Part shown: one piece after another, positions 15,365 to 39,370 of the stretch
Layout of the letters: every line of letters begins with the position of its first letter
Numbering within the stretch: position 1 is the stretch's first letter
Source: Corynebacterium vitaeruminis DSM 20294
Lineage (GTDB): Bacteria > Actinomycetota > Actinomycetes > Mycobacteriales > Mycobacteriaceae
DNA length: 64,000 nt
Assembly (NCBI RefSeq): GCF_000550805.1
Contig: NZ_CP004353.1
Span: 2,232,001 to 2,296,000 of the forward strand
Reading direction: 5' to 3'
Notes under the pieces: generated by a model
What the model was told of the DNA's origin: nothing
Seen by the model: only the letters and a program-made list of their open reading frames with translations
The model's database searches: none
Position numbers and translations under genes: made by a program

Positions 15365-15440
15365 CTAGCGCCTTGGGCGGGACGAAAGTGAGTCTTCCCG
15401 GGTTTGATGGAGGGTACGAAACCACGGAAGGATAGATCCC

Positions 15441-15758: not shown

Positions 15759-16402
15759 TCGTCGATTTCATCACCCAGTACAAGAACACTTTCGGGGTCG
15801 AGCCTATCTGCCGCGTGCTCAAAGACGCCGGCATCAAGATCGCCCCAAGTACTTACTACGCCAGGATCAATCACACTCCCAGCAACAGAGACAAACGAGA
15901 CGAGATCCTCATGAATTATCTCAATGCCCTTTTCACCAGCAATTTTTATGTCTATGGGGCAAGGAAACTTCATGCCCTCATCAACAAGGACCATCACCTC
16001 GCCTCCCACGGGCAGGGCCATGTCGCTCGGTGCACAGTCGAACGGCTGATGAAGAAAGCTAGCATTCGTGGCCCCGTCCGCAGGAAGCATCCGAATACCA
16101 CCTACACCGTAAAGAAAGAGCAGTGCCCTGCAGACCTTGTGGACCGAAACTTCCATGTCCCAGCACCGAACATGCTCTGGGTCGCTGACATCACCTACGT
16201 GCGGACCCATGTGGGCTGGGTGTACACCGCTTTCATTACCGACGCCTACTCTAGGAGGATTGTCGGTTGGAAGGTATCCGCGTTCATGTATACCGATCTC
16301 GTGGTCGACACGCTGACGATGGCGATTGATGCGAGATGCCGTGCAGGCCAGCGGATTGATCAGCTAATCCACCATAGTGATCGTGGCGTGCAGTACCGGG
16401 GA

Positions 16403-17836: not shown

Positions 17837-18209
17837 GTACCGGGCGATTGCCTATGGGCAGCGTTTGGAAGAGAACCAGATCATTGCGTCAGTCGGGTCG
17901 AAAGGAGATTCCTACGATAATGCTCTTGCAGAACCCGTGAACAGTTTGTACAAGGGCGAATGTATCCACAACATTGATCAGCACCCCGCAGGGTTTAGAC
18001 ATGCTCGTGACGTCGAGCAAGCGACCGCTGCGTGGGTCGGCTGGTACAACAATGACCGCCTGCACTCACGGCTCGGCAACACCAGTCCTGTCGAGTACGA
18101 GAACGCCTACTGGGCCAGTCTGAACCCCGTTCAAACAGCGGCGTAACCAACCCAAAAACCAGATAACACACCCTCCAAAAAACCCGGGGCTTGACAGTTT
18201 TGCCGTGGA

Positions 18210-21200: not shown

Positions 21201-24200
21201 CTCATCCCCGCAGGTGCGGGGCGCACGACCTGCCCCTCGCCAAGTGGCAGCACTACGGAGGCTCATCCCCGCAGGTGCGGGGCGCACTTCTCCCGAGCAC
21301 GGGAGGATGGGTGGCGGAACGGCTCATCCCCGCAGGTGCGGGGCGCACTATAGGTGCCATGATTTCCACTATTTTCATGGGGGCTCATCCCCGCAGGTGC
21401 GGGGCGCACGCCTCAGGGATGTCGAAATTCTGGCGGAGCCAAGGCTCATCCCCGCAGGTGCGGGGCGCACTGACCTAGTTTTTATCCCCGGATTGGAAGG
21501 ATGGGCTCATCCCCGCAGGTGCGGGGCGCACTTGAATCCTTATCGGTAGGGGTTTTTGCGGACGGGCTCATCCCCGCAGGTGCGGGGCGCACGACCCGGA
21601 TATGCTTCGTGCGAAGCTGTCCGGGGGCTCATCCCCGCAGGTGCGGGGCGCACGTTAAATAGAACGCCACATTAAACAGTGTTACGGGCTCATCCCCGCA
21701 GGTGCGGGGCGCACTCAAGACCGTCAACAGCTTCGGCGATGTGCTTAGGCTCATCCCCGCAGGTGCGGGGCGCACTTCGCCTGAGCACGGAAAGCACTAT
21801 CGCCGGCCGGCTCATCCCCGCAGGTGCGGGGCGCACTCGCCACCTGGTGCACCCAGGTCGAGAAGGCGGGGCTCATCCCCGCAGGTGCGGGGCGCACCCG
21901 TGCCGACACCGCAGCCGAGTTGGTCAGCGAGGCTCATCCCCGCAGGTGCGGGGCGCACGCATCTTATCCAGCTCGTCGCGGGTGATTCCGGGGCTCATCC
22001 CCGCAGGTGCGGGGCGCACTTAGCGCGCTGACCAGCAGAGAAGCGCCCATCCGGCTCATCCCCGCAGGTGCGGGGCGCACGTCACCGGCGACTCCCCAAA
22101 GAAGACGTGGGACGGCTCATCCCCGCAGGTGCGGGGCGCACTTGTCAACGGCGTGGTACTTCAGCAAACCACTGGGCTCATCCCCGCAGGTGCGGGGCGC
22201 ACCAACGGATAGCGGGTTGACGTGTCCCCGCCCCGGGCTCATCCCCGCAGGTGCGGGGCGCACGAGATGCCGGGCCGCAAGCAGGGCGGCGTGGAGGGCT
22301 CATCCCCGCAGGTGCGGGGCGCACCCCTCAGCGATGGGGCAATGTGCTCAAACATTGGGCTCATCCCCGCAGGTGCGGGGCGCACCGGATCCGCCTGGTG
22401 CGCCTGAGGCTCCGCCGAGGCTCATCCCCGCAGGTGCGGGGCGCACCTCACGAGATCGGCCACGCCATTCGCGGGGATAGGCTCATCCCCGCAGGTGCGG
22501 GGCGCACAACCATGTCGAGCATGGCGAGGTAGGACGGTAGGGCTCATCCCCGCAGGTGCGGGGCGCACTATGAAAAAACCTCCCACCAAACAGGGGGGAG
22601 GGGCTCATCCCCGCAGGTGCGGGGCGCACCCCTTGAGCGAGTCCAGGCGCCCCTGCAGCGAGGGCTCATCCCCGCAGGTGCGGGGCGCACGCTACCCACT
22701 CGCCGGAGCGGACGGAGACGGCGGGCTCATCCCCGCAGGTGCGGGGCGCACATTCTGCTGTGGATTCTCGCCGCGCTGATCGCGGGCTCATCCCCGCAGG
22801 TGCGGGGCGCACAGGTCGGTGAGGAAGCTGCTGTAGGTTGGCCAGGGCTCATCCCCGCAGGTGCGGGGCGCACCGTTTACTGCTTCGTCATTCATGGTGT
22901 GGTTACGGCTCATCCCCGCAGGTGCGGGGCGCACATTTTTCAGCCAGCGCGGTCGAAAGTTCACGCCGGCTCATCCCCGCAGGTGCGGGGCGCACGTTCT
23001 TCCCGAGCTGCGCATTCGTGTCGCAAAGGGCTCATCCCCGCAGGTGCGGGGCGCACTTGCAGCAGTCTGCGGAGGCGACGCGGTCGGTGGGCTCATCCCC
23101 GCAGGTGCGGGGCGCACTGTGGATTCGTACACCACGCCGTTGTAGGTGACGGCTCATCCCCGCAGGTGCGGGGCGCACGATGACGCGCATTTGCACGATT
23201 TTGTGCATGCGGGCTCATCCCCGCAGGTGCGGGGCGCACCGTAGGTGATCACACCGGAGACGTACTGTGGAGGGCTCATCCCCGCAGGTGCGGGGCGCAC
23301 GCGGTGTAGGTGTCCTGCATGGAGCCGGTCGCGGGCTCATCCCCGCAGGTGCGGGGCGCACCCCCGTTGAAGGGCGGGACACCGCCGCGCACCGGGCTCA
23401 TCCCCGCAGGTGCGGGGCGCACTGTTTGGTGGGCTTCGTAGCCTTCCTGTCCCCGGGCTCATCCCCGCAGGTGCGGGGCGCACGGCCTCGAAGCCATCGA
23501 CGTTTTGGAAGCATTCTGGCTCATCCCCGCAGGTGCGGGGCGCACTTCGCGATACCATCGACCGCGGTCTGGAACGCGGGCTCATCCCCGCAGGTGCGGG
23601 GCGCACCGGCCATCATCCACCATCCGCTTCACAGCCATGGGCTCATCCCCGCAGGTGCGGGGCGCACCCTCCCCGCCACCCGCACCAACATGATCGCCGG
23701 GGCTCATCCCCGCAGGTGCGGGGCGCACGGCGAAAATCCGTGATGGTCTCACGAAACATCAGGCTCATCCCCGCAGGTGCGGGGCGCACGGCTACACCTC
23801 ATCATCCAGCACGCCCACCCCAGGCTCATCCCCGCAGGTGCGGGGCGCACGTCCAATAACCGCCCGGACTAGTGGCCATTTCCGGCTCATCCCCGCAGGT
23901 GCGGGGCGCACTCAAAATCCTGGTCAATCACGGCGGCGAGTTTCGGCTCATCCCCGCAGGTGCGGGGCGCACCGCAGGAAATTCCACGCCGATTCTGCCG
24001 TCTTCGGCTCATCCCCGCAGGTGCGGGGCGCACGCGGATCTAAAGCTGCTGGGTGTGTCTGGTCAGGGCTCATCCCCGCAGGTGCGGGGCGCACGATGCG
24101 CAGGTTACCGAGGTGGGCGACGTGTCCGGCTCATCCCCGCAGGTGCGGGGCGCACCGTTTACTGCTTCGTCATTCATGGTGTGGTGACGGCTCATCCCCG

Positions 24201-27200
24201 CAGGTGCGGGGCGCACCAAAACATCCTCGGAATAGATGACGCGACCTGGGGCTCATCCCCGCAGGTGCGGGGCGCACATGACGAGTACCCACCGCATTGA
24301 GCAAGATGTGGGCTCATCCCCGCAGGTGCGGGGCGCACCCCGTTCTTGGCTCGCTTGGGGGTTGGTGCTGGTGGCTCATCCCCGCAGGTGCGGGGCGCAC
24401 CCATCGTCGTTGTAGTCGATCGCGGCGGTGGTCGGCTCATCCCCGCAGGTGCGGGGCGCACTCCTCACACCCACCCACTACAGCTCCGTGGAGAGGCTCA
24501 TCCCCGCAGGTGCGGGGCGCACCCTGGGACTGCTCGGGCTTGTGGTCGGGCACCGTGGCTCATCCCCGCAGGTGCGGGGCGCACGGGACCATCTCATTGA
24601 AAAACCCGGACAGCTTCGGCTCATCCCCGCAGGTGCGGGGCGCACCGAGCCCGACGACATTCCGACGATCGGCGAGATGGCTCATCCCCGCAGGTGCGGG
24701 GCGCACAAAACTCGCTCGGAATCGGCGCGGTAGCCGGTGGGCTCATCCCCGCAGGTGCGGGGCGCACCCCGAGGGGTGGCTTTTCTTATTTACACTTCCA
24801 GGGCTCATCCCCGCAGGTGCGGGGCGCACTCGAGGGCCTTGTCAGCAGCTTCCTGCTTGAGCGGCTCATCCCCGCAGGTGCGGGGCGCACGAAAACCCGT
24901 ACTGGCACATGTCCTTGAACCAGGGCTCATCCCCGCAGGTGCGGGGCGCACAGCTGGGCTGGGAGTCCGTATTCGCTTGTGACCGGCTCATCCCCGCAGG
25001 TGCGGGGCGCACGAGCTTGTGCGCGAGCCGACCTGTCAGGATCGCGGCTCATCCCCGCAGGTGCGGGGCGCACTCCACCCTCGAAGCGTTTCGAGACGGT
25101 GCGGACGGCTCATCCCCGCAGGTGCGGGGCGCACCGGCCCCTCCGGCAAATCGTAGACCACCCACGGGGCTCATCCCCGCAGGTGCGGGGCGCACTACGA
25201 CCTCGCTCCTGACTGGGGGTGGGGCGCGGGCTCATCCCCGCAGGTGCGGGGCGCACTGAAATCCTGATCATTGCGCGATTGTTCTGCCGGGCTCATCCCC
25301 GCAGGTGCGGGGCGCACCCCTCACTTGATTCTTAGCCTGTGCCGGAAGGGGGCTCATCCCCGCAGGTGCGGGGCGCACTCCAACGAGTGCTTCGAGCTGA
25401 TCCAAAGGTACGGCTCATCCCCGCAGGTGCGGGGCGCACTCCAACGAGTGCTTCGAGCTGATCCAAAGGTACGGCTCATCCCCGCAGGTGCGGGGCGCAC
25501 AACTAGGTTTCATGGCAAACCCAGCAGAACTTCGGCTCATCCCCGCAGGTGCGGGGCGCACCCACCAGTGACCTACTGAAGTTTCTGCTCGGAAGGCTCA
25601 TCCCCGCAGGTGCGGGGCGCACTACCAGAGGACGCCACACGAATGGAATGCCTTGGGCTCATCCCCGCAGGTGCGGGGCGCACCTATGCACTATTGAGTT
25701 CTCAAACAACAAGCCGGGCTCATCCCCGCAGGTGCGGGGCGCACGGGGTTTTCACGAAGGCCATCAACGATGATTTGGGCTCATCCCCGCAGGTGCGGGG
25801 CGCACGCAGCACCGAGCGAGAATCCGCCGCCGCCGCCGCCGGGCTCATCCCCGCAGGTGCGGGGCGCACTCTAGGAGGCTAAGATATGGCTACTGCCGCC
25901 GGGGCTCATCCCCGCAGGTGCGGGGCGCACGCCGCCGATCTTTATTTCTCGGAGGTTGGCTTCGGCTCATCCCCGCAGGTGCGGGGCGCACGTCACCTCA
26001 ACATCAAAAACCGCCGCCGCCAACGGCTCATCCCCGCAGGTGCGGGGCGCACCCGGGATACACCCCGGGCCGTGACGTGTACCAGGGCTCATCCCCGCAG
26101 GTGCGGGGCGCACGGCGGAGCATCAAGGCTTACTTTGCGGCGGGCGGGCTCATCCCCGCAGGTGCGGGGCGCACCCTTGGGGTGGTGTTTTTTCCTTACA
26201 CCTAGAGGGCTCATCCCCGCAGGTGCGGGGCGCACCTTGACCAGTGGGAGTTCTTTCCACCCGTGGGCGGCTCATCCCCGCAGGTGCGGGGCGCACGCTA
26301 CCCACTCGCCGGAGCGGACGGAGACGGCGGGCTCATCCCCGCAGGTGCGGGGCGCACCGGGGAAACACTGGTCAGGATGCAGCCGAATGAGGCTCATCCC
26401 CGCAGGTGCGGGGCGCACTTCTTGTCGATTACGGCGCGCGAGAAGATGGTCGGCTCATCCCCGCAGGTGCGGGGCGCACTGTGACGATCGGATACGCGAA
26501 TCTCTCGAAGGCGGCTCATCCCCGCAGGTGCGGGGCGCACCACTGCCGGTGTGACCGGCGTGACCGTCACCGGGGCTCATCCCCGCAGGTGCGGGGCGCA
26601 CTGGCGGAATGCCTGCAGGAGCCTCATAGTGTTCGGCTCATCCCCGCAGGTGCGGGGCGCACCGGTTTGACGGGTTCGCGTTTCAAACGCGACCCGGCTC
26701 ATCCCCGCAGGTGCGGGGCGCACGCGTGGATATTTACCTCGGCAATTCCCGTCGAGGGCTCATCCCCGCAGGTGCGGGGCGCACTTGCTTCGCTTCGAGG
26801 AAATCTTCTTGATTTCCGGCTCATCCCCGCAGGTGCGGGGCGCACGGATGTCCCGTCCTGGGTGGTCAAGATGGTGTCGGCTCATCCCCGCAGGTGCGGG
26901 GCGCACTTGCCGAGCATGCCCTCGAAGGTCGCCGTGGACGGCTCATCCCCGCAGGTGCGGGGCGCACCACTTCCTGCCTTTGGCGGTTGGCTTACCGTGG
27001 GGCTCATCCCCGCAGGTGCGGGGCGCACGTGCTTTTCGCGTTCTTGGATGTACGCCTGGGCGGCTCATCCCCGCAGGTGCGGGGCGCACCGTGTGTCGGA
27101 GGTGGAGCCGACGACGGTGGAGGGCTCATCCCCGCAGGTGCGGGGCGCACACATGCCCCCACAATTTGTGCTGGAGCGTGTTGGGCTCATCCCCGCAGGT

Positions 27201-30139
27201 GCGGGGCGCACGGCGAGGTAATACCCGAACATTGTCCTGATGTAGGCTCATCCCCGCAGGTGCGGGGCGCACGCCCGCAGCTCGTCCAGTGAACCACGGA
27301 ACGCGGGCTCATCCCCGCAGGTGCGGGGCGCACGATCTTGATAGTGTCAATTGTCACAGTCTTTCCGGCTCATCCCCGCAGGTGCGGGGCGCACGGGGCG
27401 CAGAGCCACGCCCACATGCGCGGCGGGGGCTCATCCCCGCAGGTGCGGGGCGCACATCTGCTTCTTACCACCGAAGCTCTTGATGTCCGGCTCATCCCCG
27501 CAGGTGCGGGGCGCACGTGGTGAAGCGTGATGCGAGTGCGCGTGCGAAGGGCTCATCCCCGCAGGTGCGGGGCGCACAACATCATGCCCGCCATCACCGC
27601 CCCCGCATACGGCTCATCCCCGCAGGTGCGGGGCGCACCGCTCGAGACCGACAATCCCGGGGTAAGCACAGGGCTCATCCCCGCAGGTGCGGGGCGCACC
27701 GCCCTCGTAGGCTCCGCCTCACGGCGGAGACGGGCTCATCCCCGCAGGTGCGGGGCGCACCCGCGGTTTCGGCGACGCTGTAGGCGCGTCGTGGGCTCAT
27801 CCCCGCAGGTGCGGGGCGCACCGGAGCCTTGCTATGCGCTCCTCATACACCACAGGCTCATCCCCGCAGGTGCGGGGCGCACTTGTAGTCGACCCGTACC
27901 GTATGCGGCGTATCCGGCTCATCCCCGCAGGTGCGGGGCGCACCAGGTTGAGGCGCAGGATTCGGCGCTTTTGGCGGGCTCATCCCCGCAGGTGCGGGGC
28001 GCACCAACATGGCTGTGGCAAAGCGTTCTCGTGCCCGGGCTCATCCCCGCAGGTGCGGGGCGCACCGCGACTTCTCAACCGTCCACCCCAGCCACTCGGG
28101 CTCATCCCCGCAGGTGCGGGGCGCACAGTGCGGCCGCCCCTGTCGCTATGGCCTGCGCCGGCTCATCCCCGCAGGTGCGGGGCGCACGTGCGGAAAAAGA
28201 GTCGCTGCACTTCCTCACCGGGCTCATCCCCGCAGGTGCGGGGCGCACTCGGACCATGGGTCGCGTTTCCTGGTGGCGTGCGGCTCATCCCCGCAGGTGC
28301 GGGGCGCACTGTGTGTTTTAAAACACGTGCCGATAAGGAGAAGGCTCATCCCCGCAGGTGCGGGGCGCACTTATGCAGCGGGCCACCGGGGAAGCGAATC
28401 GACGGCTCATCCCCGCAGGTGCGGGGCGCACCGTGGAACGCAGCCAGGCGGTATCCGCCGCTGGGGCTCATCCCCGCAGGTGCGGGGCGCACCTTCGGCA
28501 ATACGCTCGACTGGCTCAAGAATGCGGCTCATCCCCGCAGGTGCGGGGCGCACCTCGACCGAGGTCGCGCTGACCTTCAAGGTGCGGGCTCATCCCCGCA
28601 GGTGCGGGGCGCACAGTACCAGATCATTCACCGTAATGGGATGGGTAGGCTCATCCCCGCAGGTGCGGGGCGCACGTGATGATATCAAGACTGTCATGGG
28701 GTCGGGTGGGCTCATCCCCGCAGGTGCGGGGCGCACCTGTATCCGATTTTTGAGTACATGAAGGCCGGAGGCTCATCCCCGCAGGTGCGGGGCGCACCCA
28801 CCGAGCACCGCGCTGACCGCCTTAAAAGTCGGCTCATCCCCGCAGGTGCGGGGCGCACCTTCAGAATCTTGTCGACGATTGGGGAATCCTCGGCTCATCC
28901 CCGCAGGTGCGGGGCGCACCCGCCGTCTACCTCGGCGTCGCATCCGCCAAGGGGCTCATCCCCGCAGGTGCGGGGCGCACGCCGTAGGGGCTTTCTAGGA
29001 GGTGGTTGTCTTCGGCTCATCCCCGCAGGTGCGGGGCGCACTGAGCATGAGGGCGCACGAGAGTGCTATGAGGGGGCTCATCCCCGCAGGTGCGGGGCGC
29101 ACTTCCTGACGGCATTTGCGCGCATTTTCCACGTCGGCTCATCCCCGCAGGTGCGGGGCGCACCTCCAGACCCACAACATCGCCGCGGGCGCGGAGGGCT
29201 CATCCCCGCAGGTGCGGGGCGCACCAGAGTTAATGGTTGATGCCATTAGAAAGCTCCGGCTCATCCCCGCAGGTGCGGGGCGCACCCAGCGCCGCCTGAA
29301 TCAAGTTCTGCGCACGCGGGCTCATCCCCGCAGGTGCGGGGCGCACTCGAAACCGGCGCGCTGCGCAACGGTGCCCGCGGGCTCATCCCCGCAGGTGCGG
29401 GGCGCACTCGCAGCCGCGTGGGATTGGGTGCGGACAACCGGGCTCATCCCCGCAGGTGCGGGGCGCACTCAAACAACAAGCCGTTCCTACTGGTGAAGGG
29501 CGGCTCATCCCCGCAGGTGCGGGGCGCACACCTGGTATTTCACCAAGGTCGGCAGGATAGTGGGCTCATCCCCGCAGGTGCGGGGCGCACGGGGGCCTGC
29601 AGACCGTCAAGCTCGGCCTGTAGGGCTCATCCCCGCAGGTGCGGGGCGCACGACGCCCCCACCGGCTTCGACCAGTCCGGCACCGGCTCATCCCCGCAGG
29701 TGCGGGGCGCACCAAGGCTGGACTCGGTGGCGAAGTCTAGTGAGGGGCTCATCCCCGCAGGTGCGGGGCGCACTAGCGGTGCCGTCCCCGGTTAGAGCGG
29801 GATCACGGCTCATCCCCGCAGGTGCGGGGCGCACATATGCGCAGTTCTAAAGGTTGTCAGTTGACTAGGCTCATCCCCGCAGGTGCGGGGCGCACTCCGA
29901 TGTGATCGTTGATGGATCATATTTGGTGGGCTCATCCCCGCAGGTGCGGGGCGCACGGTACGACACCAGAAGCACGCAGGATTGGCCGGGGCTCATCCCC
30001 GCAGGTGCGGGGCGCACCAGTCCGGCTCATCTCTCAAGGGGTCGATCATGGGCTCATCCCCGCAGGTGCGGGGCGCACTCTCGCCACCATTTTTGCCGTT
30101 GTCGCCAGTGGGGCTCATCCCCGCAGGTGCGGGGCGCAC
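18210..30139 (-). CRISPR. Type I-E CRISPR array, main segment (about 196 repeats)
   Basis: Nearly invariant 28-base repeats with 33-base spacers (a few of 34) run from 18210 to 30139. Arithmetic on start positions gives 196 repeats here and 214 with the trailer segment. The array is read on the minus strand away from cas2, because ATGAGCC ends each repeat in that sense and repeat decay is at the far end. Repeat variants occur only near the old end (18462-18489, 18819-18846). Open reading frames across the array, rich in GSSPQVRGA or LIPAGAGRT, are translations of the repeat and are not genes. A tandem spacer duplication, an identical pair and a one-base-different pair are listed under findings. 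Confidence 0.98.
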
Positions 30140-30242: not shown

Positions 30243-30569
30243 TCAGCGCATCCTGCGAGCTTTGCTCCATCCGGTCCGGCGCGCGGTGCGCTGCCTCTTG
30301 TCAGGGCGAATCATGAGTTTGATGCCATCGAAGTCCGTCGGCACCCAGTCGTTTCGGTGCACTTTGAAGTCGAAGCCCTGCTCATTCGCCGCGTTGTGGA
30401 CGAGGATCGCGCGCCCGTCGCGAACAAGGTCGCAGGTCCGCTCCCACACCGCGTCGCGAACACGGGCGCTAGGCCGCCCGACGAACACGCCTGGCGATAT
30501 CTCCATCAGCCATTTCGTGAGGTCGCCACGTAAGCCAGCTGGACAGGCGGTCACGACCAAGACCATCAT
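30243..30569 (-). CDS. cas2: CRISPR-associated endonuclease Cas2, type I-E
   Basis: A 108-residue Cas2e that scaffolds two Cas1 dimers in the spacer-integration complex. It begins MMVLVVTACPAGLRGDLTKWLMEISPGVFVG, the typical Cas2e start. The E. coli protein is slightly shorter; the extra residues are a basic tail (RQRTARRTGWSKARRMR). Start 30569 lies four bases from the cas1 stop, with GGAGG across the cas1 end. It is the last gene of the cas operon, next to the leader. Confidence 0.95.
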   Translation of the reverse strand: MMVLVVTACPAGLRGDLTKWLMEISPGVFVGRPSARVRDAVWERTCDLVRDGRAILVHNAANEQGFDFKVHRNDWVPTDFDGIKLMIRPDKRQRTARRTGWSKARRMR

Positions 30570-30573
30570 CGCG

Positions 30574-31503
30574 TCACTCTTCCTCCCAGTTGATTCCGCT
30601 CGCAACGGTCTCAAGGTCGCTCCACAGTCGCAGTTCCGCCTCGATGTTCTCCGCCTCAGAGTCGATCTCCATGAGGAAAAGGAGATCCTTCACCATGCGT
30701 TGCAAAAGACGCTTTTCGACGACCTTGTCACGAACGAAATGCCGAACGTACCGGTCAGCATCCATTTGTGCCCCGGCCACGGCATCAAATGCCGCGGGTA
30801 TCGTGATCTCGGCCTTGTACAAATCGGCGAGATCGTAGACGAAGGCTCTGTCCGTGCCTTGGTGAACGATGCCCAGCGCAGGATTGAATCCGAGGCTGAC
30901 AATGACGGCGTGGGCGACGCCGTATAGGGCGGCATTGGCAGCCGTGAGGGCCCGATTGATGGGGTCGCCAGCATCGAAGTCGGCGGGGTTGTAGCTTCGT
31001 CGACTCCAGTAGACGCCAGTTCGGGCGCTGTGTTCGGAGTAGATTCGCTTCATTCGTGCGCCCTCGCGGCCGCGCAGCTGAGCCATGCTGAGTCGCGAGA
31101 CGTCCTCACCAGGAAAGCGCATGGCGTACATTTGCCGCGCGCAAAACAGCCGCCGGCGCTGATTGGTCACGATTGCCGCCTGAGCCATGGCGTTTCTGGA
31201 GGTCTTCGCGAGCGGTCGCCCGTGGGCGTAATAGCGAATGCCCTTCTCCCCTACCCAGACGACGCTCACTCCGGCGTCGCCAAGCAGCGCCATGGCTGCG
31301 TAGGTAACCCGCGTACCTGGCCCCAGCAGCAGCACCGCGAGATCCGCGGCGGGCACATGCGCGACTCCGCGATAGTCGTGAATCGTGAGCGCATTATTGT
31401 CGCGGTTGATCGTCGCTTTCTCCGCGTAGAGAAACGAGATCCTCTCCTCTACCTTGGACAAGGCGATGCGGTCGAGCGGCGTGCTGCTGGGGTTCTCAGA
31501 CAT
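30574..31503 (-). CDS. cas1: CRISPR-associated integrase Cas1, type I-E
   Basis: A 309-residue Cas1e, the catalytic subunit of spacer acquisition. Metal-binding residues are visible: Glu in QLRGREGARMKRIY, His in LGIVHQGTDRAF and Asp in VYDLADLYK. The start at 31503 (MSENPSSTPLDR) lies 8 bases after the cas6e stop and is preferred over an upstream in-frame start within cas6e. It shares little with the type II Cas1 at 49013, so each system carries its own adaptation module. Confidence 0.95.
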   Translation of the reverse strand: MSENPSSTPLDRIALSKVEERISFLYAEKATINRDNNALTIHDYRGVAHVPAADLAVLLLGPGTRVTYAAMALLGDAGVSVVWVGEKGIRYYAHGRPLAKTSRNAMAQAAIVTNQRRRLFCARQMYAMRFPGEDVSRLSMAQLRGREGARMKRIYSEHSARTGVYWSRRSYNPADFDAGDPINRALTAANAALYGVAHAVIVSLGFNPALGIVHQGTDRAFVYDLADLYKAEITIPAAFDAVAGAQMDADRYVRHFVRDKVVEKRLLQRMVKDLLFLMEIDSEAENIEAELRLWSDLETVASGINWEEE

Positions 31504-31511
31504 GGCCGGCC

Positions 31512-32150
31512 CTACCGCCGAGCGAGGGTTAGGAGGCCGCACCCATAGGCACGACCTCTGCCCAAGCCGTCGACAAGCACTTGTCGCAGCTGATCGGGAT
31601 CAGTGACCTCAAGGACGCCACGGTACCGCACCGCCTGCAACGCAACTCGCCGTCGATTGGACTCCTCGCCTTTGTTGAAACGCAGATGCGAGCGTTCGAC
31701 GATAGCGCACTCCTTGAGCGCGAATCCGCCCTTCGCCGCCCGATCCTCGAGCCACTGGGCTTGTCCCTCATTCCCCACGAGCGACACCACCTTTCCACGC
31801 TTGGAATTCTTCTTGAATTCCGACTTGGTCGGGTTGGCCACTAGCTCGAAGTTCCACTGCTGACCTTTTCGAAGCGAACCGAGCAGGGGCATGTAATCGG
31901 CGATCTCGGGCGGCCGCGTCGCCCAACCGGCCTGCTCCACGATGTGGCTCGCGTCGCTGGCCTCGGGGCCAACCACATAGAGCACATACTCGTGGCCCCG
32001 CTTGTCGAGGCGCCAGAGCACTCGGGACTCATCGCTGAGATCAGGAGGAAAGGCTCCGCGCACGGCGGCGTGCATCGCTTGGGGGTTGGTGAGCAACTTT
32101 CGGGCTTGCCGCCGCTCAGGATTTAGCAGGATCCTCGTGAAGCTGGTCAT
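31512..32150 (-). CDS. cas6e: CRISPR RNA endoribonuclease Cas6e
   Basis: A 212-residue Cas6e (CasE) that cuts the precursor at the base of the repeat hairpin, leaving the 8-nt handle GATGAGCC. It has the expected start MTSFTRILLNPERRQ and the HAAVRGAFP segment with the candidate catalytic histidine. The C-terminal glycine-rich loop is GLGRGRAYGCGLL. Start overlaps the cas5e stop by 4 bases. It stays bound to the 3' hairpin as a Cascade subunit. Confidence 0.95.
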   Translation of the reverse strand: MTSFTRILLNPERRQARKLLTNPQAMHAAVRGAFPPDLSDESRVLWRLDKRGHEYVLYVVGPEASDASHIVEQAGWATRPPEIADYMPLLGSLRKGQQWNFELVANPTKSEFKKNSKRGKVVSLVGNEGQAQWLEDRAAKGGFALKECAIVERSHLRFNKGEESNRRRVALQAVRYRGVLEVTDPDQLRQVLVDGLGRGRAYGCGLLTLARR

Positions 32151-32848
32151 ACCGACATCACCGCCTCCATGAAGGGGTCGTCGTGCTGCCCTAGCGGATT
32201 ATCAACCTCGACGCCGCGCAAGTCATGAACGACTTGGCGCCAGCCATACTTCCGATGCTCCTGGGAAAAGGACAGAGGTACGTCTTGACGAGATACCCCG
32301 CTTTCGTTGGGACCGGCATCCCTGAAGATCGGCAGATTGACCTTCTTCGCGCGCTTTACGCGATGCGACTTGGATGCCTGCCACGGAAGTTCCTTCAGCG
32401 CCGTCACCGCGTCCTTGTCCACCGTTCCTACGAAAAGATCGGGAGACGCGGGGCACGAGCGCCGCCCCAAGAACAGCGGAAAGCGGGGGCTGTTCACTGC
32501 TCTAGCCAGCGACTCAATGAATTCATTGTCCTCACTCTCAATCGCCGAAACAAAGACAGCGTCCTCGAGAAAGTAACGCGTCACTAGCCTCGTTCCGCCG
32601 CCAGTCTGCCACTTTTCCGCAGTCTGGTAGTCCTTGAGCAGGGTTCCGGGCTGGTCAACACGCACCGCGAAGGTGAGCCCCGCGAGATCCTCGATGGGGT
32701 CCGTCCGCCGACGCCCTTGGGCCGCTGCCAAGAGTCCCAAGACCCCGGACTTTGTGGGGACTTGTCCCGTGGTTCGAATGTTGTATCGGCTGTCGTCGCC
32801 CCATGACTGCAAGGGCCCCTTCAGCCGAAGCAAAAGGGTGGCGGTCAC
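32147..32848 (-). CDS. cas5e: Cascade subunit Cas5e
   Basis: A 233-residue RAMP protein that caps the 5' handle of the crRNA in Cascade. It opens with LLLRLKGPLQSWGDDSRYN and TKSGVLGLLAAAQGRRR, the usual Cas5e signature. The GTG start overlaps the cas7e stop (GTGA), and the stop overlaps the cas6e start, so translation is probably coupled through the three genes. Confidence 0.95.
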   Translation of the reverse strand: MTATLLLRLKGPLQSWGDDSRYNIRTTGQVPTKSGVLGLLAAAQGRRRTDPIEDLAGLTFAVRVDQPGTLLKDYQTAEKWQTGGGTRLVTRYFLEDAVFVSAIESEDNEFIESLARAVNSPRFPLFLGRRSCPASPDLFVGTVDKDAVTALKELPWQASKSHRVKRAKKVNLPIFRDAGPNESGVSRQDVPLSFSQEHRKYGWRQVVHDLRGVEVDNPLGQHDDPFMEAVMSV

Positions 32849-33963
32849 TTCGATCGCTCCTCCAAGAACGCAGCGACGGATGCGGAAAGCTCATCCAAGG
32901 TGGCTGCCTCCGCGAGGTCCGCAAACGGAGCACCCAACTCTCCGAGGCCCATTACGAAGGCCTTCAGCGGAACAAAGCCATAGGTTTCCTCGATCTGGCG
33001 CTCCTCCGTTGCCAGCTTCTTCGCACCCTCGGCTCGACGTCCGGCCTCTTGATCCGAGCCGACCGGCTCCTCGAAGGCGTTGACTAGGGACACGGAACGC
33101 CCGTCGCGGATAGCGACGTAGACAAGCTCGGGAAGAGTGTTGTTGGCGAAGGTGTTTTGCTTACCGGTGGGAAGGCTCGTGATGAAGCTCTTGATAAACG
33201 CCACCGCGGCCTCACGTGCTGCAGGGTGGTCACCAAGATTCTCACCCAGCGATTCAACGTCGATGGTCGCAAAGCGGTAAAGGGTGGAAGACATCATCTG
33301 GACCGTGCCGATCATGCCGGCGCCTGTTTCCTCGTTGTCCTCGACGAAGTCATCGACGGCGGTGAAGTAGTCGAACTCTGGCTCGGACTCGTGAATGCCC
33401 AGGGCGTGCGCAACCTGGACCGAGGCATCGACGTTGTAGGACGGATCGTCGGCAAGCATGCGGCCGAACATCGCGATGTCGATGCTGTGCTTGGTGTCGA
33501 TCGCTTCCTTCGCCTTCTTCTTATCTGGCTTGCCTTCGCCTTCGATCGCCAGCTTCGCGGCCGCCTCGATCTGACGGGGGCTGAGGAAGACGAGGTAGCC
33601 TGCCTCCGGTGCTCCCACTACAATCTCGTCGCCCTTCTTGACCTTCTTTTCGGTGATCTTGATGCCCGCAGCCTTGAAGACGCTCTCCGCCAGCTTGATG
33701 GCATCGGCCATCTCAATGGACTCATCCAGGCTGTGGATCTTCTCAGCAACGATCTCCACGACTTTGCGGGTGCGGAAGCCCACGCTTCCAGCGGGCAGAT
33801 GCTTTTCGAAGTCCAAACGAATCGCGCGCTTCCACGACTGCGAGGAGACTCGCTGGCGGGGCACTCCGCCGAACACCGCGCTCTTAGGCGCACCGGTGTC
33901 GTCGCGGTTGATCAGGCTCGGGGGAAGGGTCTGCAGGGCGTGAATATCAATGACGAGGGACAT
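32845..33963 (-). CDS. cas7e: Cascade backbone subunit Cas7e
   Basis: A 372-residue Cas7e (CasC/Cse4), present in six copies along the crRNA in Cascade. The N-terminus IDIHALQTLPPSLINRDDTGAPK and PRQRVSSQSWKRAIR are hallmark segments. AAAGGAAA precedes the ATG at a suitable distance. A 24-base gap separates it from cse2, the widest gap between the Cascade genes, so its own ribosome binding site may support the high copy number needed. Confidence 0.96.
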   Translation of the reverse strand: MSLVIDIHALQTLPPSLINRDDTGAPKSAVFGGVPRQRVSSQSWKRAIRLDFEKHLPAGSVGFRTRKVVEIVAEKIHSLDESIEMADAIKLAESVFKAAGIKITEKKVKKGDEIVVGAPEAGYLVFLSPRQIEAAAKLAIEGEGKPDKKKAKEAIDTKHSIDIAMFGRMLADDPSYNVDASVQVAHALGIHESEPEFDYFTAVDDFVEDNEETGAGMIGTVQMMSSTLYRFATIDVESLGENLGDHPAAREAAVAFIKSFITSLPTGKQNTFANNTLPELVYVAIRDGRSVSLVNAFEEPVGSDQEAGRRAEGAKKLATEERQIEETYGFVPLKAFVMGLGELGAPFADLAEAATLDELSASVAAFLEERSK

Positions 33964-33987
33964 TGGGGTTTCCTTTCAATGCTTTCT

Positions 33988-34650
33988 CTAGTTTTCCGTG
34001 GTGGTTTCGGTTTCTTCGCTGGGTGTTCCCGACGGCCGGCCGATGGCAAAATCACGGCCCCATCGCAGCAGAACCCCATTCTTCCGCTTGGGATTTTCCA
34101 GGTCACGCAGATCGACCGCGAAACGTCCGTAGTCGAAACCGAGATGGTTGTTCCGAAGCAGTGAGATCAGATTGCGCGCGTGAATGAGGCGCGAACGCGA
34201 ATTGCGGGCAAGGACCATGGCGTCGAAACGCGGCTTGATGGAGCCGGACTCGCTTTGCTGAACGAGGCGCCCGCAGGCGGAAGCAAAGGTCGCATTCTCC
34301 ACGTGCATCTTGCTCGTTGCCCCCTGCATGTGCAGGGCAAACAGGGTCAAGGCATGGAATGCCGCATTCTCAGACGGTGACGCCTTATTCCCCTGCCCCA
34401 GCTCGCGATCGCTCAGATCCGGCTGCAGGGTGCCAAGCACTAGGCTGATCGCCAACGGATCCCGATCAATTGGCTGGCCCGCGAGCTTTCGCAGTTGCGC
34501 GAGTTCCGCGCGCGCTTCGGCCTTTGCCGAGTGCGTTACGTTTCCGAGGTAGCTATGTTGCAGCCATTCGGCAGTGTTTGACACTGAAAAGCGCAATCGC
34601 GGCTTTCCGACGGCCAATGGCGACTCATCTTTTGTCGAGGGTTGAGTCAT
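33988..34650 (-). CDS. cse2: Cascade small subunit Cse2
   Basis: A 220-residue helical protein (CasB/Cse2, Cas11e), present in two copies on the belly of Cascade and stabilising the R-loop. It has no catalytic motif; the call rests on the basic helical composition (KAEARAELAQLRKLAG, SRSRLIHARNLISLLRNN) and on its position between cse1 and cas7e. Its start overlaps the cse1 stop by four bases. Confidence 0.93.
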   Translation of the reverse strand: MTQPSTKDESPLAVGKPRLRFSVSNTAEWLQHSYLGNVTHSAKAEARAELAQLRKLAGQPIDRDPLAISLVLGTLQPDLSDRELGQGNKASPSENAAFHALTLFALHMQGATSKMHVENATFASACGRLVQQSESGSIKPRFDAMVLARNSRSRLIHARNLISLLRNNHLGFDYGRFAVDLRDLENPKRKNGVLLRWGRDFAIGRPSGTPSEETETTTEN

Positions 34651-36320
34651 CGATCATTCTCCTTTTCTTCACGGTTCTGATCCTCAGATTCAAAGGCAAG
34701 AGGCAAGGCCTCTTTCAACTTCTTTCGTAGCCACATCATCGCGGTGCTGGCCGACTGGATGTGGACCTTCTCTCCAGAGTCGGTGATGCGCCCGACGAGG
34801 GCTTTCGGCCCAGCACCTTTCACGAGCACCGCCGCTTGCTCGAGGATTGTTTGGCGAACTTCCTTCTGCCACTCCGCTATTTGGTTGTCCATGTCGCCAA
34901 CGTTCAGGTGAGAAAGCCAGGTCAGGAAGCGCGGCTCGAGGATTCCGAGAGCGGTATCCGTGGGATACGGCTGGAATTCGTATTCTCCTCCCGCGGCGAC
35001 GAGCAGCTGCCCCGCAAAACTGCCAAGGGCTACTGCGGCATCGTTGGTGGACTTGGCCGCGTCTAGAAGCTTCCTTCGTTGTACACGGGACTTCTCCTCA
35101 AAGAAGAGCGCAATCGGGAGGTCCAGCCCGTAATGCACGACCGTGGCGACGGAAGAACCTTTTGGACCGTATTCAACTGAAAATAATTCAAGCTTCAAGA
35201 GCTTTGGGACAAGGTCAGGCTCTTGCTCAGACAAGTCAGCGAGGAAAGTCAGCGTCTTCGGGCGCTTCGGCGCAAGGTCTTTAGGAGTGAAGCCAAGATC
35301 GCCGTCAATGGAGATGAGCGGAGAAAGGCTCCTCCACATCGTTCTCTCGGTACCATACGGGCGCGGGTAGTAAACCGGCTGTCCCTTCTTCGACTTGTTG
35401 GCGCTATAGCGGTGGGGAGTCATTGGATCGTCGAGGAGATTGGCGCCAGCGTCTGGTATCTTGTCGCCGTTTGAGACGAGTACTCCTGTGACCTTGTCTC
35501 CTACGACAAAAAGTTTGATCCGCCTAGACTGCCAAGTGGCGAGGTCGGAGGCACCACGGGGCACAACAGAATCCGCCATGGAGTTATCGCGCTGCTCCGA
35601 AGAATCTTGAGGGCGCTCCCAACTCGGTTGGTCACCTGGATCGTAATTTTTCCAAACCGTATTCAGGACAAGTGTCTCTCGCAGATTTGCGCCGACGACG
35701 AGGGTTCCACCAGTCATTCCGGTCCATCCCGTACCGATCGGATACCCACGCCCTCCCTTCACCCGCGGATCGCCAAGGGCACCGGACTTAATTCCGGAAT
35801 AGTCGAAGGCCTGCGTGTAAACGACCCACCTAGCAGCTTCTCCGAAGCCAACCCATGACCGCGCCTCACCTGCACGCATCGTAAAGTATTCGTTCTCGGC
35901 CTCCGGCACAATTCTCTGAATCTGTGAATGACCACCGCTCTGTGTAGCCAGATCGGCAACCTGCATGAAGGGAGTCTCAGGGTGCAGGAGGTCGAAGCGA
36001 TCCTCGTGCAACTTCAGGTACTCGAGTACTGCTTCATCAGGACTGTTGTTTCGTGCCGATTCTTGCTGTGTTTCGTACCAGTCAATCACTGCATCGATGG
36101 CATCAGCGTCGCGAAAGTCGGCATCCATTTCTGGGCCATGCGCGCGCCAATAGATTGCTAGCAAAAGCCTAACAAGAGCGTAGGTCTGAACCGGGGAATC
36201 CGCCCGGACCTCTTTTACGGGATTCGAGCCGTCAAAGACTTGCCTAATGCCCAAGTCCGCTTGCTCACCGTTCTCGAGAACGCAAGGAATCCATGGTTCG
36301 TCGAGAAGCGAAAAAGTCAT
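34647..36320 (-). CDS. cse1: Cascade large subunit Cse1 (Cas8e)
   Basis: A 557-residue Cse1 (CasA) that recognises the PAM and recruits Cas3. The N-terminal segment FSLLDEPWIPCVLENG and the following LLLAIYWRA helix are typical, as is the C-terminal four-helix region (LEQAAVLVKGAGPKAL and onward). Length is close to the family norm of about 500-560. GGAG lies 6 bases before the start. It follows cas3 after an 87-base AT-rich gap without a clear terminator, so the operon probably continues from cas3, with possible separate regulation. Confidence 0.95.
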   Translation of the reverse strand: MTFSLLDEPWIPCVLENGEQADLGIRQVFDGSNPVKEVRADSPVQTYALVRLLLAIYWRAHGPEMDADFRDADAIDAVIDWYETQQESARNNSPDEAVLEYLKLHEDRFDLLHPETPFMQVADLATQSGGHSQIQRIVPEAENEYFTMRAGEARSWVGFGEAARWVVYTQAFDYSGIKSGALGDPRVKGGRGYPIGTGWTGMTGGTLVVGANLRETLVLNTVWKNYDPGDQPSWERPQDSSEQRDNSMADSVVPRGASDLATWQSRRIKLFVVGDKVTGVLVSNGDKIPDAGANLLDDPMTPHRYSANKSKKGQPVYYPRPYGTERTMWRSLSPLISIDGDLGFTPKDLAPKRPKTLTFLADLSEQEPDLVPKLLKLELFSVEYGPKGSSVATVVHYGLDLPIALFFEEKSRVQRRKLLDAAKSTNDAAVALGSFAGQLLVAAGGEYEFQPYPTDTALGILEPRFLTWLSHLNVGDMDNQIAEWQKEVRQTILEQAAVLVKGAGPKALVGRITDSGEKVHIQSASTAMMWLRKKLKEALPLAFESEDQNREEKENDR

Positions 36321-36407: not shown

Positions 36408-39194
36408 TCATTTCCGCTCAACTTCATGGAGCCCAATTTCGTGAGAATATTCCAAGACAACTTTTCCCAGCGTGATCCGGTTATTTTCATCCAGCCTGAG
36501 AGCTACTTCCCCCTTCAAAAGGGGGCTTTTCGCCCACCCCTCGGGGGTATCAAGCTCAAGCTGGGTGATGGTGGCCTCGAAGACCGACTCATACCTCGCG
36601 AATCTGCTGGGCAACCTCAGCGAAGAGGATGCGAGCTCGAGGGCTTGCGGGAAATCAAGAATCTCCCCATCTATGTGCATGGTCTCATCACTCGAGCTCA
36701 GGGCGCGGTAACCATAGTCATTTCCGATGATGGGAATGACCTCGATGGACGGGTCGGTGTCACGGACCTGGGCTCGTGCGCGAATGTCCTCCTGATCCGC
36801 CCTCTGCCGAGGCCCGATTCTCTCAAACAGCGCACCAAGGTTCTTCGCGTCTTTAGGAGCAGGCAGTTGAAAGACCCCCGCACGTTGAAGCAATTGCGCA
36901 CGATCGGAAACGCTTGTGTCGACCGCCTCTTCCCATGCCTTTCTCCACTCCTCGGGAATCTCACTCCTTACACGAGAAGTGTCGTAGACGAACTGGACCG
37001 AATCCGGAACATCCTCGGGCCTCTTGAAGGGCTTTGCGCCAAAACGCGAGGTCAGCAGGTAATACGTCCCCAGAAGGATGCTGTTGTCGTAGATTGCTTC
37101 GGTGCCAGGATCGAACTCAGGTGTCGGAGTGGTCCCCCTGATACCGCGGATCAAGACCATTGGCGACTTCATACGCTCCGGTCGGTCGCCGCTGTGCCCT
37201 GAATGCCTGTGGACTCTTCCTAGGCGTTGGATTATCAAGTCGATGGGGGCTATGTCGGTAATGAGCAGGTCGGCGTCGATGTCGAGGCTCTGCTCCAGGA
37301 CTTGTGTTCCACACACGATAAGGCGGTGCGGGCGGCCGCTGCCTCGATGAGACTTCTTGCCAAGCGCTTGAAGGAGGCGTTCCTCTTTGGCCGACCGGTC
37401 ATTGGCCGCGAATGCGGAGTGATGAAGCTCCACCTCGCCTGGGAATTCGGCGGCCAAAGCTTCAAAGCTTTCCTGGGCGCGGCGAATTGTATTCGAAATG
37501 ACGAGGATACAGCCACCATCCTCTGTCGCAGACCGAACCTCTGCTACCAAGGTGGTTAGGTCATCTTCGATGAACCGGATCTCAGCCTCTGCGTCATTGC
37601 CACGCGGAGCAACCTCGATTTCCGAGAGTCCCTTCTCACTGGCAATGGTGATGAGTGGATACGCCGTCGATTGAGGCATCGGCAGCTTAGACTTCCACGC
37701 TGATGAATACGCCTCAACAAAGGAACGCTTGCTTTCCAACGGGAGGGTCGCACTGAGCATGATCACCGAGGCGCCGTATTCCGCGAGCCACTTGAGCGTG
37801 GTTTGGAGGTAGGAGCTCGTGTACGCGTCGTAGGCATGGCACTCGTCTATGATGACTACCTTTCCGGACAACGCAACGTGCCGGAGCATGGAGTGCCGCA
37901 TCTGCAGCGCCATCATCAAAACCTGATCCACCGTACCGATGACGAAGTTGGAGAGCATCCCCTTCTTCCGGCCACTCAGCCAGCTTCCTGCCACCACGTC
38001 GCCACCTGCCTTGTCATCGTCACCGATGTTCCGAAGCCGAAGATTGTTGTAGCTGCTCAGGAGGCGATTCTTCGAATGTGCCAAATAAAGAGAGCTGATG
38101 GTATCGGGCGGAGTAATTGTCTTCGCCCAGTCCTTGAAGCGATCAAACAGGCCATTGGCAGTCGCCATCGTCGGGGCAGCAAGCACCACCCCTTGGGCTC
38201 CTGACTTCTTACCCAAGATTTCGGCCACCTTGAAGGCCGCCTCAGTCTTCCCTTCTCCGGTCGGGGCTTCGATGATGACCAAGGCGGGCACCGCAGCTTC
38301 GACAGCCGCGCGAAGCGCCTGAACCTGAACTTCCCTGGGGCTTGCGTCCTCTGGCCATCCAAAGGAAGACAAATACTCGGATTTTGGATCCCGGATGACC
38401 AATTCGCAGACTTCTCCTATCCACGGATGGGTCAACTCGACCTGGGCCATTCCTTGGATCACACGGGATGCTTGATCCCCTCGTCGTTGCGTCGGAAATG
38501 CTTCGGTGTTCGAGGCGATCCAGTCGCACATCACGACGAATCCTGTGAGGACTTCAATCGCGCCGGCAGGCAAATAATCCAGTCGACTAAGCAGGTCAGA
38601 AATCCCTGTGACCTGCGCAAGCGAGTCGAGCAGCTCACGGTGCACCGCTTTCCAGCCGGCGGGGTAGTCGTCAACAATATCCCTTACCAGGCCTCGCGTC
38701 GATGCATCTGCAGGCAGACCATGATGCGCCTCGGCCACAGATACGAGGGGCAGAACCTTGCGCCGGCGCGCACCATTGTTGCAGAGCCATTCGAGCTGGA
38801 TCGCGCCAGAGAACGCCGCGTGATAGGGCTTGTTTTGTTTTTCCAGAAGATCCATGTTCACTGGCAGCCCCGCATCCATGACGGAATCGATGAGCGAACG
38901 CTTGGAGGTGGGATCCACGAGCTTTTCCTGAAAGCAGATGGAAGCCTTGCCGATATCGTGGGCTGCTGCACACCAGATCGCTAGGACTCGAACCTCTTCC
39001 CGCGAGAGGCTCGTCGCCTTGATGAGGAATTCTTTCGTCTGATGAGAAAGATAGTTATCCCACACGTACTCGGCGACCGCGCCAGAATCCGCCATGTGCT
39101 GGGCGAGATTCATCGGCCCTGACTCGTCGCCCGACTTGGCTAACACTGACCTTGTCTGGGCACCTAAAGCAGTTGCAAACATTTCCCAATTCAT
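36408..39194 (-). CDS. cas3: CRISPR-associated helicase-nuclease Cas3
   Basis: A 928-residue HD-nuclease and superfamily 2 helicase that degrades targets bound by Cascade. The HD domain shows WCAAAHDIGKASICFQ and NKPYHAAFSGAI. The helicase shows IIEAPTGEGKTEAAF (Walker A), VVIIDECHAYDAYTS (Walker B/DECH), IMLSATLP (motif III) and IIQRLGRVHRH (motif VI). The C-terminal Cas3 domain follows. Start at 39194 (MNWEMFATALG) is preferred over one 57 bases upstream because GAGG lies 7 bases before it. First gene of the operon and divergent from fic; the CRISPR-like RNA described at 39282-39370 lies in its upstream region. Confidence 0.96.
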   Translation of the reverse strand: MNWEMFATALGAQTRSVLAKSGDESGPMNLAQHMADSGAVAEYVWDNYLSHQTKEFLIKATSLSREEVRVLAIWCAAAHDIGKASICFQEKLVDPTSKRSLIDSVMDAGLPVNMDLLEKQNKPYHAAFSGAIQLEWLCNNGARRRKVLPLVSVAEAHHGLPADASTRGLVRDIVDDYPAGWKAVHRELLDSLAQVTGISDLLSRLDYLPAGAIEVLTGFVVMCDWIASNTEAFPTQRRGDQASRVIQGMAQVELTHPWIGEVCELVIRDPKSEYLSSFGWPEDASPREVQVQALRAAVEAAVPALVIIEAPTGEGKTEAAFKVAEILGKKSGAQGVVLAAPTMATANGLFDRFKDWAKTITPPDTISSLYLAHSKNRLLSSYNNLRLRNIGDDDKAGGDVVAGSWLSGRKKGMLSNFVIGTVDQVLMMALQMRHSMLRHVALSGKVVIIDECHAYDAYTSSYLQTTLKWLAEYGASVIMLSATLPLESKRSFVEAYSSAWKSKLPMPQSTAYPLITIASEKGLSEIEVAPRGNDAEAEIRFIEDDLTTLVAEVRSATEDGGCILVISNTIRRAQESFEALAAEFPGEVELHHSAFAANDRSAKEERLLQALGKKSHRGSGRPHRLIVCGTQVLEQSLDIDADLLITDIAPIDLIIQRLGRVHRHSGHSGDRPERMKSPMVLIRGIRGTTPTPEFDPGTEAIYDNSILLGTYYLLTSRFGAKPFKRPEDVPDSVQFVYDTSRVRSEIPEEWRKAWEEAVDTSVSDRAQLLQRAGVFQLPAPKDAKNLGALFERIGPRQRADQEDIRARAQVRDTDPSIEVIPIIGNDYGYRALSSSDETMHIDGEILDFPQALELASSSLRLPSRFARYESVFEATITQLELDTPEGWAKSPLLKGEVALRLDENNRITLGKVVLEYSHEIGLHEVERK

Positions 39195-39239
39195 CGAAAT
39201 CCTCAATTTAAATAAGAAATTAGGTTGTTTCTGTTTTCG

Positions 39240-39268
39240 AGTATAACTCACCTCTCGGTAGGATGTAG
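39240..39268. promoter_or_regulatory. Overlapping divergent -10 elements for cas3 and the CRISPR-like RNA
   Basis: On the minus strand TATACT at 39245-39240 has CTACAT 17 bases upstream (39268-39263) and would start cas3 transcription near 39233. On the plus strand TATAAC at 39242-39247 overlaps it and would start an RNA near 39254, leading into the first pseudo-repeat; it has no convincing -35, which is common in corynebacteria. Both are predictions by eye. Confidence 0.5.
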
Positions 39269-39281
39269 CCTCGAGAAGAAC

Positions 39282-39370
39282 AATTTCTCTGCAGTGGCGG
39301 AGATGAGCCGTTCTTTTTTAAGTTGCCAGGCTGGTTTTTCTCACCTTCCCCGCACTTGCGGGGCCCAAAG
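39282..39370 (+). ncRNA. Candidate CreA/CreR-like degenerate mini-CRISPR RNA
   Basis: Two I-E pseudo-repeats on the plus strand, antisense to the cas3 upstream region. The first (39282-39309) keeps the handle GATGAGCC and a stem CTCTGC/GCGGAG around a 4-base loop. Against the normal CCCCGC/GCGGGG stem one C-G pair became T-A on both sides and one became a T-G wobble, so folding is kept. The second (39343-39370) keeps a perfect CCCCGC/GCGGGG hairpin with loop ACTT and has lost the handle. The hairpins start at 39287 and 39348, exactly 61 bases apart, leaving a 33-base pseudo-spacer (39310-39342) that begins GTTCTTTTTTAAG. Cas6e could release one crRNA-like RNA from this. CreA and CreR RNAs of other type I systems have this form and guide Cascade to partly matched promoters. 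Transcription is unproven. Confidence 0.78.

What the first reader, a model, noticed from the sequence alone, without database searches (positions are those of the whole stretch)
39282..39370. Hidden two-repeat mini-CRISPR between cas3 and fic with the exact 61-base array period
Two degenerate I-E repeats lie on the plus strand. Their hairpins start at 39287 and 39348, exactly one array period apart, leaving a 33-base pseudo-spacer, the array's spacer length. The first keeps the 8-base crRNA handle and a folded stem with one compensatory C-G to T-A change; the second keeps a perfect hairpin but not the handle. Decay has spared what Cas6e processing of a single guide would need. This is the form of CreA and CreR RNAs, which use Cascade for gene control instead of defence. 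I know of no description of such an element next to a type I-E cas3 and a Fic gene.
Basis: partly seen in the sequence, partly recalled or inferred. Interest (0 to 1): 0.95.

Follow-up and report, generated by a model that had tools for sequence, protein, structure and literature searches.

The report
Self-silencing mini-CRISPR beside cas3
Beside its CRISPR defence genes this corynebacterium carries a tiny two-repeat CRISPR unit whose guide fits the start of those same genes, apparently to keep their own expression down, and many related species carry a matching pair of guide and target.

Summary
At 39282-39363(+) two degenerate type I-E repeats flank a 32-nt spacer: psiR1 keeps a 6-bp stem and the handle ATGAGCCG; the psiR2 stem starts 61 bases later. 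Repeat similarity alone is weak (psiR1 17/28). The case rests on the target and its evolution. The guide matches the cas3 leader on the cas strand (PAM AAT, protospacer 39218-39187); in the first 15 bases only positions 6 and 12 mismatch, and this seed site is unique in the 2.93-Mb genome. In 45 of 77 Corynebacterium genomes with cas3, an equivalent unit carries a guide that fits its own cas3 leader: over 41 distinct guides, positions 1-5 and 7-11 match at 85-100%, 6 and 12 at chance, with PAM AAN in 40 and always the cas strand. A further set gave 9 of 15 genomes. It is best read as a CreR, a crRNA-like RNA by which Cascade represses its own operon; no expression data exist. Fic is a bystander. 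CreR is a known kind, I-E included. Not found described in my searches: handle-to-psiR2 lengths fall in two classes 12 nt (two Cas7 footprints) apart.

The parts
39282..39310 (+). psiR1: degenerate I-E repeat, 6-bp stem CTCTGC/GCGGAG, intact 8-nt crRNA handle ATGAGCCG (39303-39310)
   Evidence: handle [AG]TGA[AG]CC in units of 45 of 77 genomes; 31 of 41 distinct units pair at least 5 of 6 stem positions
39311..39342 (+). guide (32-nt spacer) of the creR unit
39343..39363 (+). psiR2: degenerate repeat with perfect stem CCCCGC/GCGGGG, handle lost (predicted Cas6e 3' site)
   Evidence: stem of psiR2 nearly invariant over 41 distinct units, in part because the detector asks for it
39219..39221 (-). 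PAM AAT of the predicted CreR target
   Evidence: AAN in 40 of 41 (AAC 32, AAT 4, AAG 3, AAA 1; TTA 1)
39187..39218 (-). predicted protospacer in the cas3 leader; identical at positions 1-15 (39218-39204) except 6 and 12; overlaps ribosome-binding site and cas3 start
39240..39245 (-). possible -10 element TATACT of the cas3 promoter (read by eye; the promoter scan did not report it)
   Evidence: inference
36408..39194 (-). cas3 (start taken as ATG 39194-39192, MNWE...; the GTG start at 39251 listed by the ORF listing lies upstream of the target)
30243..36320 (-). cse1-cse2-cas7-cas5-cas6e-cas1-cas2, rest of the tightly packed I-E operon
14301..30139 (-). canonical I-E array (205 exact repeats), interrupted at about 15.4-18.2 kb

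Best explanation
The element is a creR gene: a two-repeat mini-CRISPR transcribed on the plus strand, cut by Cas6e at psiR1 and psiR2 into a crRNA-sized (about 61-nt) RNA that loads into the type I-E Cascade. Guided by 13 of the first 15 guide bases and the PAM AAT, this Cascade binds the cas3 leader (39218-39187, minus strand) without enough pairing for Cas3 cleavage, and blocks expression of the cas3-cse1-cse2-cas7-cas5-cas6e-cas1-cas2 operon. The result is negative feedback: repression eases when array crRNAs or anti-CRISPRs take Cascade away. Shown by computation: the anatomy, the unique seed site, the PAM, and genus-wide covariation of guide and target. Inferred: transcription, Cas6e cutting, Cascade loading, repression and the feedback.
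For: Own target 13/15 with PAM AAT on the cas strand; AANTTCTTNTTTAA occurs once in 2.93 Mb, at this site. The nearest relative (G156, cas3 61% identical) has a different guide and a co-changed target, also PAM AAT, 13/15. 46 units gave 41 distinct guides (first 17 nt); against their own cas3 leaders positions 1-5 match in 41, 40, 39, 41, 39 of 41; 6 in 10; 7-11 in 40, 39, 39, 38, 35; 12 in 12; 13-16 in 36, 27, 25, 20; 17 in 12. All 41 on the cas strand; 34 of 41 score 12 or more of 15, against 18 of 1640 guide-leader pairs swapped between species and 15 of 2050 shuffled guides. With AAN and cas strand required, the own guide is strictly the best of 41 for its leader in 32, tied in 6. Second set: 9 of 15 genomes have the unit, 9 of 9 with AAN and the cas strand, 8 of 9 scoring 11 or more. 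The 29th base of the window array is C 106, G 65, T 30, A 4, in line with AAC/AAG/AAT; one phage protospacer has AAC. Complete I-E gene set.
Against: No transcript, processing or repression data. 32 of 77 genomes with a cas3 relative show no unit under the detector, and 6 of 15 in the second set; four same-genus units of another arrangement were found later among the 32, one of them without a target. psiR1 stems pair 4 or fewer of 6 positions in 10 of 41 distinct units. Of two phage protospacers followed, the perfect match has ACC, not AAN. Three of 41 guides (L009, L030, L037) fit their own leader less well than some other species' guide does. Sites were chosen by best score over positions other than 6 and 12, which lifts the scored positions; the controls had the same freedom. 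The cas3 promoter is not mapped, and the consensus scan found none at the expected place.
Confidence: 0.92

Rival explanations
1. A decayed remnant of a second CRISPR array beside cas3, without function.
For: In several relatives a canonical array starts about 50-75 bases beyond psiR2 in the same orientation (e.g. L012, L013, L015, L016, L022, L024); psiR2 has lost the handle.
Against: A remnant's spacer would not match its own cas3 leader on the cas strand with AAN PAM and the 1-5/7-11 pattern across 41 distinct guides (AAN in 40), nor keep the handle and distances of only 25/26 or 37/38 in 54 of 54 units found.
Confidence: 0.04
2. A CreA-type antitoxin RNA that represses the neighbouring fic gene as toxin (CreTA/CrePA-like addiction module).
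For: fic (PF02661) starts 164 bases beyond the psiR2 stem; CrePA couples a protein toxin to a crRNA-like RNA (PMC12737573, passages).
Against: Guide against fic leader: best 10/15, PAM GCA, background level. The nearest relative has the unit with a tRNA-Arg gene and another ORF on that side, and a fic relative was found in 0 of 5 relatives searched (no positive control).
Confidence: 0.02
3. psiR2 is only an intrinsic terminator or other hairpin and the rest is chance.
For: In 13 of 41 distinct units the 9 bases after psiR2 hold 5 or more T.
Against: Not in the window (CCCAAAGCC follows); does not explain handle, spacing or target covariation.
Confidence: 0.02

Closest known systems
CreR (cas-regulating RNAs; Liu et al. 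2023 Cell Host Microbe 31:1481, not held; known here through passages of PMC12948488, PMC12737573 and PMC13131331)
   Same: crRNA-like RNA from a mini-CRISPR, partial match to the cas promoter region; types I-B, I-E and V-A named in PMC13131331.
   Different: Here in corynebacteria, with the match just upstream of cas3; many relatives have a guide 12 nt shorter. Whether the original paper already lists corynebacteria or short forms could not be checked.
CreA of CreTA (PMC8501985 and PMC9458426, abstracts in part and passages)
   Same: Two degenerate repeats, psiR1 more diverged than psiR2, seed positions 1-5 and 7-11 pair with a promoter next to a PAM.
   Different: CreA represses a toxin gene; this guide fits cas3 and not the neighbouring fic gene.
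Canonical type I-E CRISPR array
   Same: 61-base period, handle, hairpin, PAM class in line with the array's 29th base.
   Different: Degenerate repeats, one spacer, self target with seed-side pairing only.

Membership tests
CreR | two degenerate repeats (psiR1 with 5' handle, psiR2 with hairpin) around one spacer, outside an array, near cas | tested here: met
CreR | partial, seed-side complementarity to the promoter/leader of the cognate cas operon, next to a PAM | tested here: met
   (leader; the promoter itself is not mapped)
CreR | Cas6-dependent processing and effector-dependent repression of cas | not testable with these tools
   needs RNA and reporter experiments
CreR | repression relieved by competing crRNAs or anti-CRISPR proteins | not testable with these tools
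   feature as described in PMC12737573 (passages)
CreTA/CrePA (CreA) | guide matches the promoter of a linked toxin gene | tested here: not met
   fic leader best 10/15, no AAN PAM; fic not linked in the nearest relative. Other, unannotated toxin RNAs were not searched for.
canonical CRISPR array | two or more near-identical repeats | tested here: not met
   psiR1 17/28 and psiR2 16/28 identical to the array repeat in this register

The most novel reading that the evidence does not exclude
CreR units of Corynebacterium come in two quantised sizes: the handle-to-psiR2 distance is 37/38 (as in arrays; the window) or 25/26, with nothing else in 54 of 54 units found by a detector open from 18 to 47, and the class changed at least four times on the cas3 tree. 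The 12-nt step equals two Cas7 footprints, so the short form would assemble a reduced Cascade (about four Cas7) that is a dedicated repressor unable to license Cas3, while array crRNAs of the same cell build the full killing complex.
Probability: 0.5. Interest if true: 0.72.

Novelty: new member of a known kind. Interest (0 to 1): 0.56.

Why it matters
It documents likely RNA-guided self-repression of a type I-E system across much of a genus, with dozens of naturally different guide-target pairs. The match profile is an evolutionary footprint of what Cascade seems to need to bind without cutting: seed 1-5 and 7-11, free sixth positions, fading after about 16. The two length classes give a precise, testable prediction about Cascade size as a repressor/killer switch; an engineered 12-nt shortening in Haloarcula (36 to 24, type I-B, PMC10989794, abstract) kept repression while interference and priming vanished.

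Tried and rejected
fic as target: rejected. Internal structure in spacers as a further function: mean z -0.65 for 16 long, -0.78 for 25 short, -0.24 for 80 array spacers (80 is a part of the array), not convincing. psiR2 as general terminator: only 13 of 41. A common position of -10-like hexamers relative to the target: none. Inverted repeats in 39195-39300: none reported. Plasmid search with array spacers: 20 of 65 records listed, all 65 at 60-80% identity and the listed ones by eye like other species' arrays, not used. Phage hits: only two (H5, H11) of the listed ones were followed. Repeat identity alone as evidence: insufficient. The detectors missed units (loop of 3, no psiR1 stem in register) and were replaced by that. 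In one search L002 and L003 scored only 6 and 7 because the searched region began upstream of the target; with the region extended both score 13. Both detectors skip any unit whose second repeat is followed by a handle, since that is an array unit; so a creR with a complete second repeat would be missed. Hairpin pairs seen but not counted: L102 (distance 29, best match beside itself), L092 (19, 14 on the other strand), L094 (33 and array-edge units), L077/L105 plus strand (51).

Full report
WHAT IS THERE. The window is part of a 2.93-Mb single-contig genome, most likely Corynebacterium: the one named cas3 relative found is C. pilosum and two array spacers match phages of C. vitaeruminis. The minus strand carries a complete type I-E operon, cas3-cse1-cse2-cas7-cas5-cas6e-cas1-cas2, 30243-39194, followed by an array with 205 exact repeats GTGCGCCCCGCACCTGCGGGGATGAGCC and a 61-base period. 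The stems start 61 bases apart and both hairpins are predicted. As repeat similarity the case is weak (17/28 and 16/28).

THE TARGET. The guide TTCTTTTTTAAGTTGCC... matches TTCTTATTTAAATTGAG... on the minus strand right before cas3. In the first 15 bases only positions 6 and 12 mismatch; that Cascade leaves every sixth base unpaired is recalled structural knowledge. The PAM is AAT (39221-39219) and the 32-bp protospacer is 39218-39187, covering the ribosome-binding site and the ATG at 39194-39192. The seed pattern with AAN PAM occurs once in the genome, there. Besides the guide itself and this site, the next two places listed for the window score 12/15 with PAMs TTC and CTT, and the fic leader gives 10/15; guides swapped between species mostly score 8-10.

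RELATIVES. 77 of 201 genus genomes have a cas3 relative at E 1e-60. Stretches upstream of the hit were fetched for all 77, in a few cases short or beside a fragmentary cas3 (for example L056, 495 bases), plus C. pilosum L032, which duplicates one of them (L051). A detector asking for [AG]TGA[AG]CC and a psiR2-type stem at any distance from 18 to 47, and skipping array units, found the unit in 46 of 78 loci, 45 of 77 without the duplicate. In the nearest relative (G156, cas3 61%) guide and target have changed together. The 46 units hold 41 distinct guides (first 17 nt). Matches per position to the own leader were 41, 40, 39, 41, 39 (1-5), 10 (6), 40, 39, 39, 38, 35 (7-11), 12 (12), 36, 27, 25, 20 (13-16) and 12 (17) of 41, then near chance. 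Positions 6 and 12 were not scored in choosing the site; the others were, which lifts them somewhat, and the controls had the same freedom. All 41 lie on the cas strand; PAM AAC 32, AAT 4, AAG 3, AAA 1, TTA 1 (the last, L009, is a weak case, 9/15, with an AAT alternative of equal score). 34 of 41 own pairs reach 12/15, against 18 of 1640 pairs swapped between species and 15 of 2050 shuffled guides. With AAN and cas strand required, the own guide is strictly best of 41 in 32 leaders, tied in 6 and beaten in 3 (L009, L030, L037); all ten seed positions match in 26 of 41. These are species on a tree, not independent draws, and several guides are related.

SECOND SET. A wider search covered all 242 held genomes of the genus, 91 with cas3 at E 1e-100. 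From 15 genomes outside the first 77, 9 have the unit; all 9 have distances 25, 26, 37 or 38, AAN PAM (AAC 8, AAT 1) and the cas strand; scores 9 to 14, 8 of 9 at 11 or more; 5 of the 9 guides equal an earlier guide in the first 17 bases, 4 are new. Six have none under this detector; two of those six (G368, G436) had already been looked at as L088 and L103. Among loci without the unit, a broader scan found units in the other orientation in 4 same-genus loci of a divergent I-E lineage (L069, L074, L077, L078) and, in the usual orientation, in one locus of another genus (L093), distances 26, 26, 26, 38, 38, with a target of 12/15 or more in 4 of 5 (not L069). L006 keeps only psiR2 (read by eye). 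Of 17 genomes of other genera of the family with cas3, only L093 gave a unit with a target that I count.

PAM. The base after the 28-nt repeat, taken from the PAM in I-E arrays (recalled from E. coli), is C 106, G 65, T 30, A 4 in the window array, in line with AAC/AAG/AAT. Of two phage protospacers followed, one with mismatches has AAC; the other, a perfect match, has ACC, which does not fit AAN.

TWO SIZES. The handle-to-psiR2 distance over 54 units (45 + 9) is 26 in 27, 25 in 4, 37 in 11, 38 in 12, none elsewhere. The array value is 38. The classes differ by 12, two 6-nt Cas7 steps (recalled structural knowledge). On a cas3 tree of 45 rows the class needs four changes, all forced by starred branches, against 14.7 on average for shuffled labels (0 of 500 as low), so it is clustered by descent but changed repeatedly (quick tree with long branches). 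Near neighbours L011 (38) and L025 (25) differ in class. Published engineering in a I-B system found that shortening from 36 to 24 kept repression and abolished interference and priming (PMC10989794, abstract), and crRNA acts as a ruler for complex size in a I-F system (PMC6828817, abstract). By title, a study of E. coli reports that shortened-spacer Cascades can still interfere (Kuznedelov 2016, seen only as a reference; paper not held), which speaks against the idea that short guides alone cannot cut. That the short CreR builds a smaller, non-cutting Cascade is inference. The window itself is of the long class.

MECHANISM. Most likely a CreR: Cas6e-processed, Cascade-loaded, binding the cas3 leader with seed-side pairing only and so repressing the operon, with relief when Cascade is drawn off. 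In the window a TATACT at 39245-39240(-) would put the protospacer about 15 bases after the start of transcription (a roadblock); in other species the position relative to possible -10 elements varies. None of this is mapped.

KNOWN OR NEW. CreR is in print for I-B, I-E and V-A (PMC13131331, passage; also PMC12737573, passages; PMC12948488, passages; the primary paper is not held). Seed 1-5/7-11 pairing and a more degenerate psiR1 are known from CreA (PMC8501985, passages; PMC9458426, abstract and passages). The listings showed no paper on CreR in corynebacteria or on size classes, but searches listed only 20 of 87, 40 of 123 and 12 of 136 papers, and the library lacks most subscription papers. 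Hence: new member of a known kind, with a possibly new regularity.

Noticed in passing
window 45705-49007 (+) and about 50231-53000: A second, type II system: Cas9 (TIGR01865) and a 64-base-period array some 6 kb or more from the I-E operon.
   Followed up: partly
window 15.4-18.2 kb: The I-E array is interrupted by about 2.9 kb holding ORFs that look like transposase genes (447 aa and 225 aa; named by eye, no family search).
   Followed up: partly
window 39527-40168 (+): Fic/Doc-family protein whose motif reads QPFEDGNKR, with Q where the catalytic His of HxFx(D/E)GN is expected (motif recalled); it may be inactive or altered.
   Followed up: no
window 25195-25229 and 27513-27549: Array spacers match lysin and tail-protein genes of phages isolated on Corynebacterium vitaeruminis, hinting at the host species.
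   Followed up: partly
L003 4786-4860 (-): In the nearest relative a tRNA-Arg(TCT) gene lies about 340 bases beyond psiR2, the tRNA species that CreT toxins sequester (PMC8501985); probably coincidence.
   Followed up: no
L006 (G126): What looks like a partial deletion leaves only psiR2 upstream of an open cas3 frame: a possible natural creR knock-out for comparison.
   Followed up: no
L069, L074, L077, L078, L093: creR-like units in divergent I-E loci (first four, opposite orientation) and in another genus (L093), again with distances 26 or 38.
   Followed up: partly
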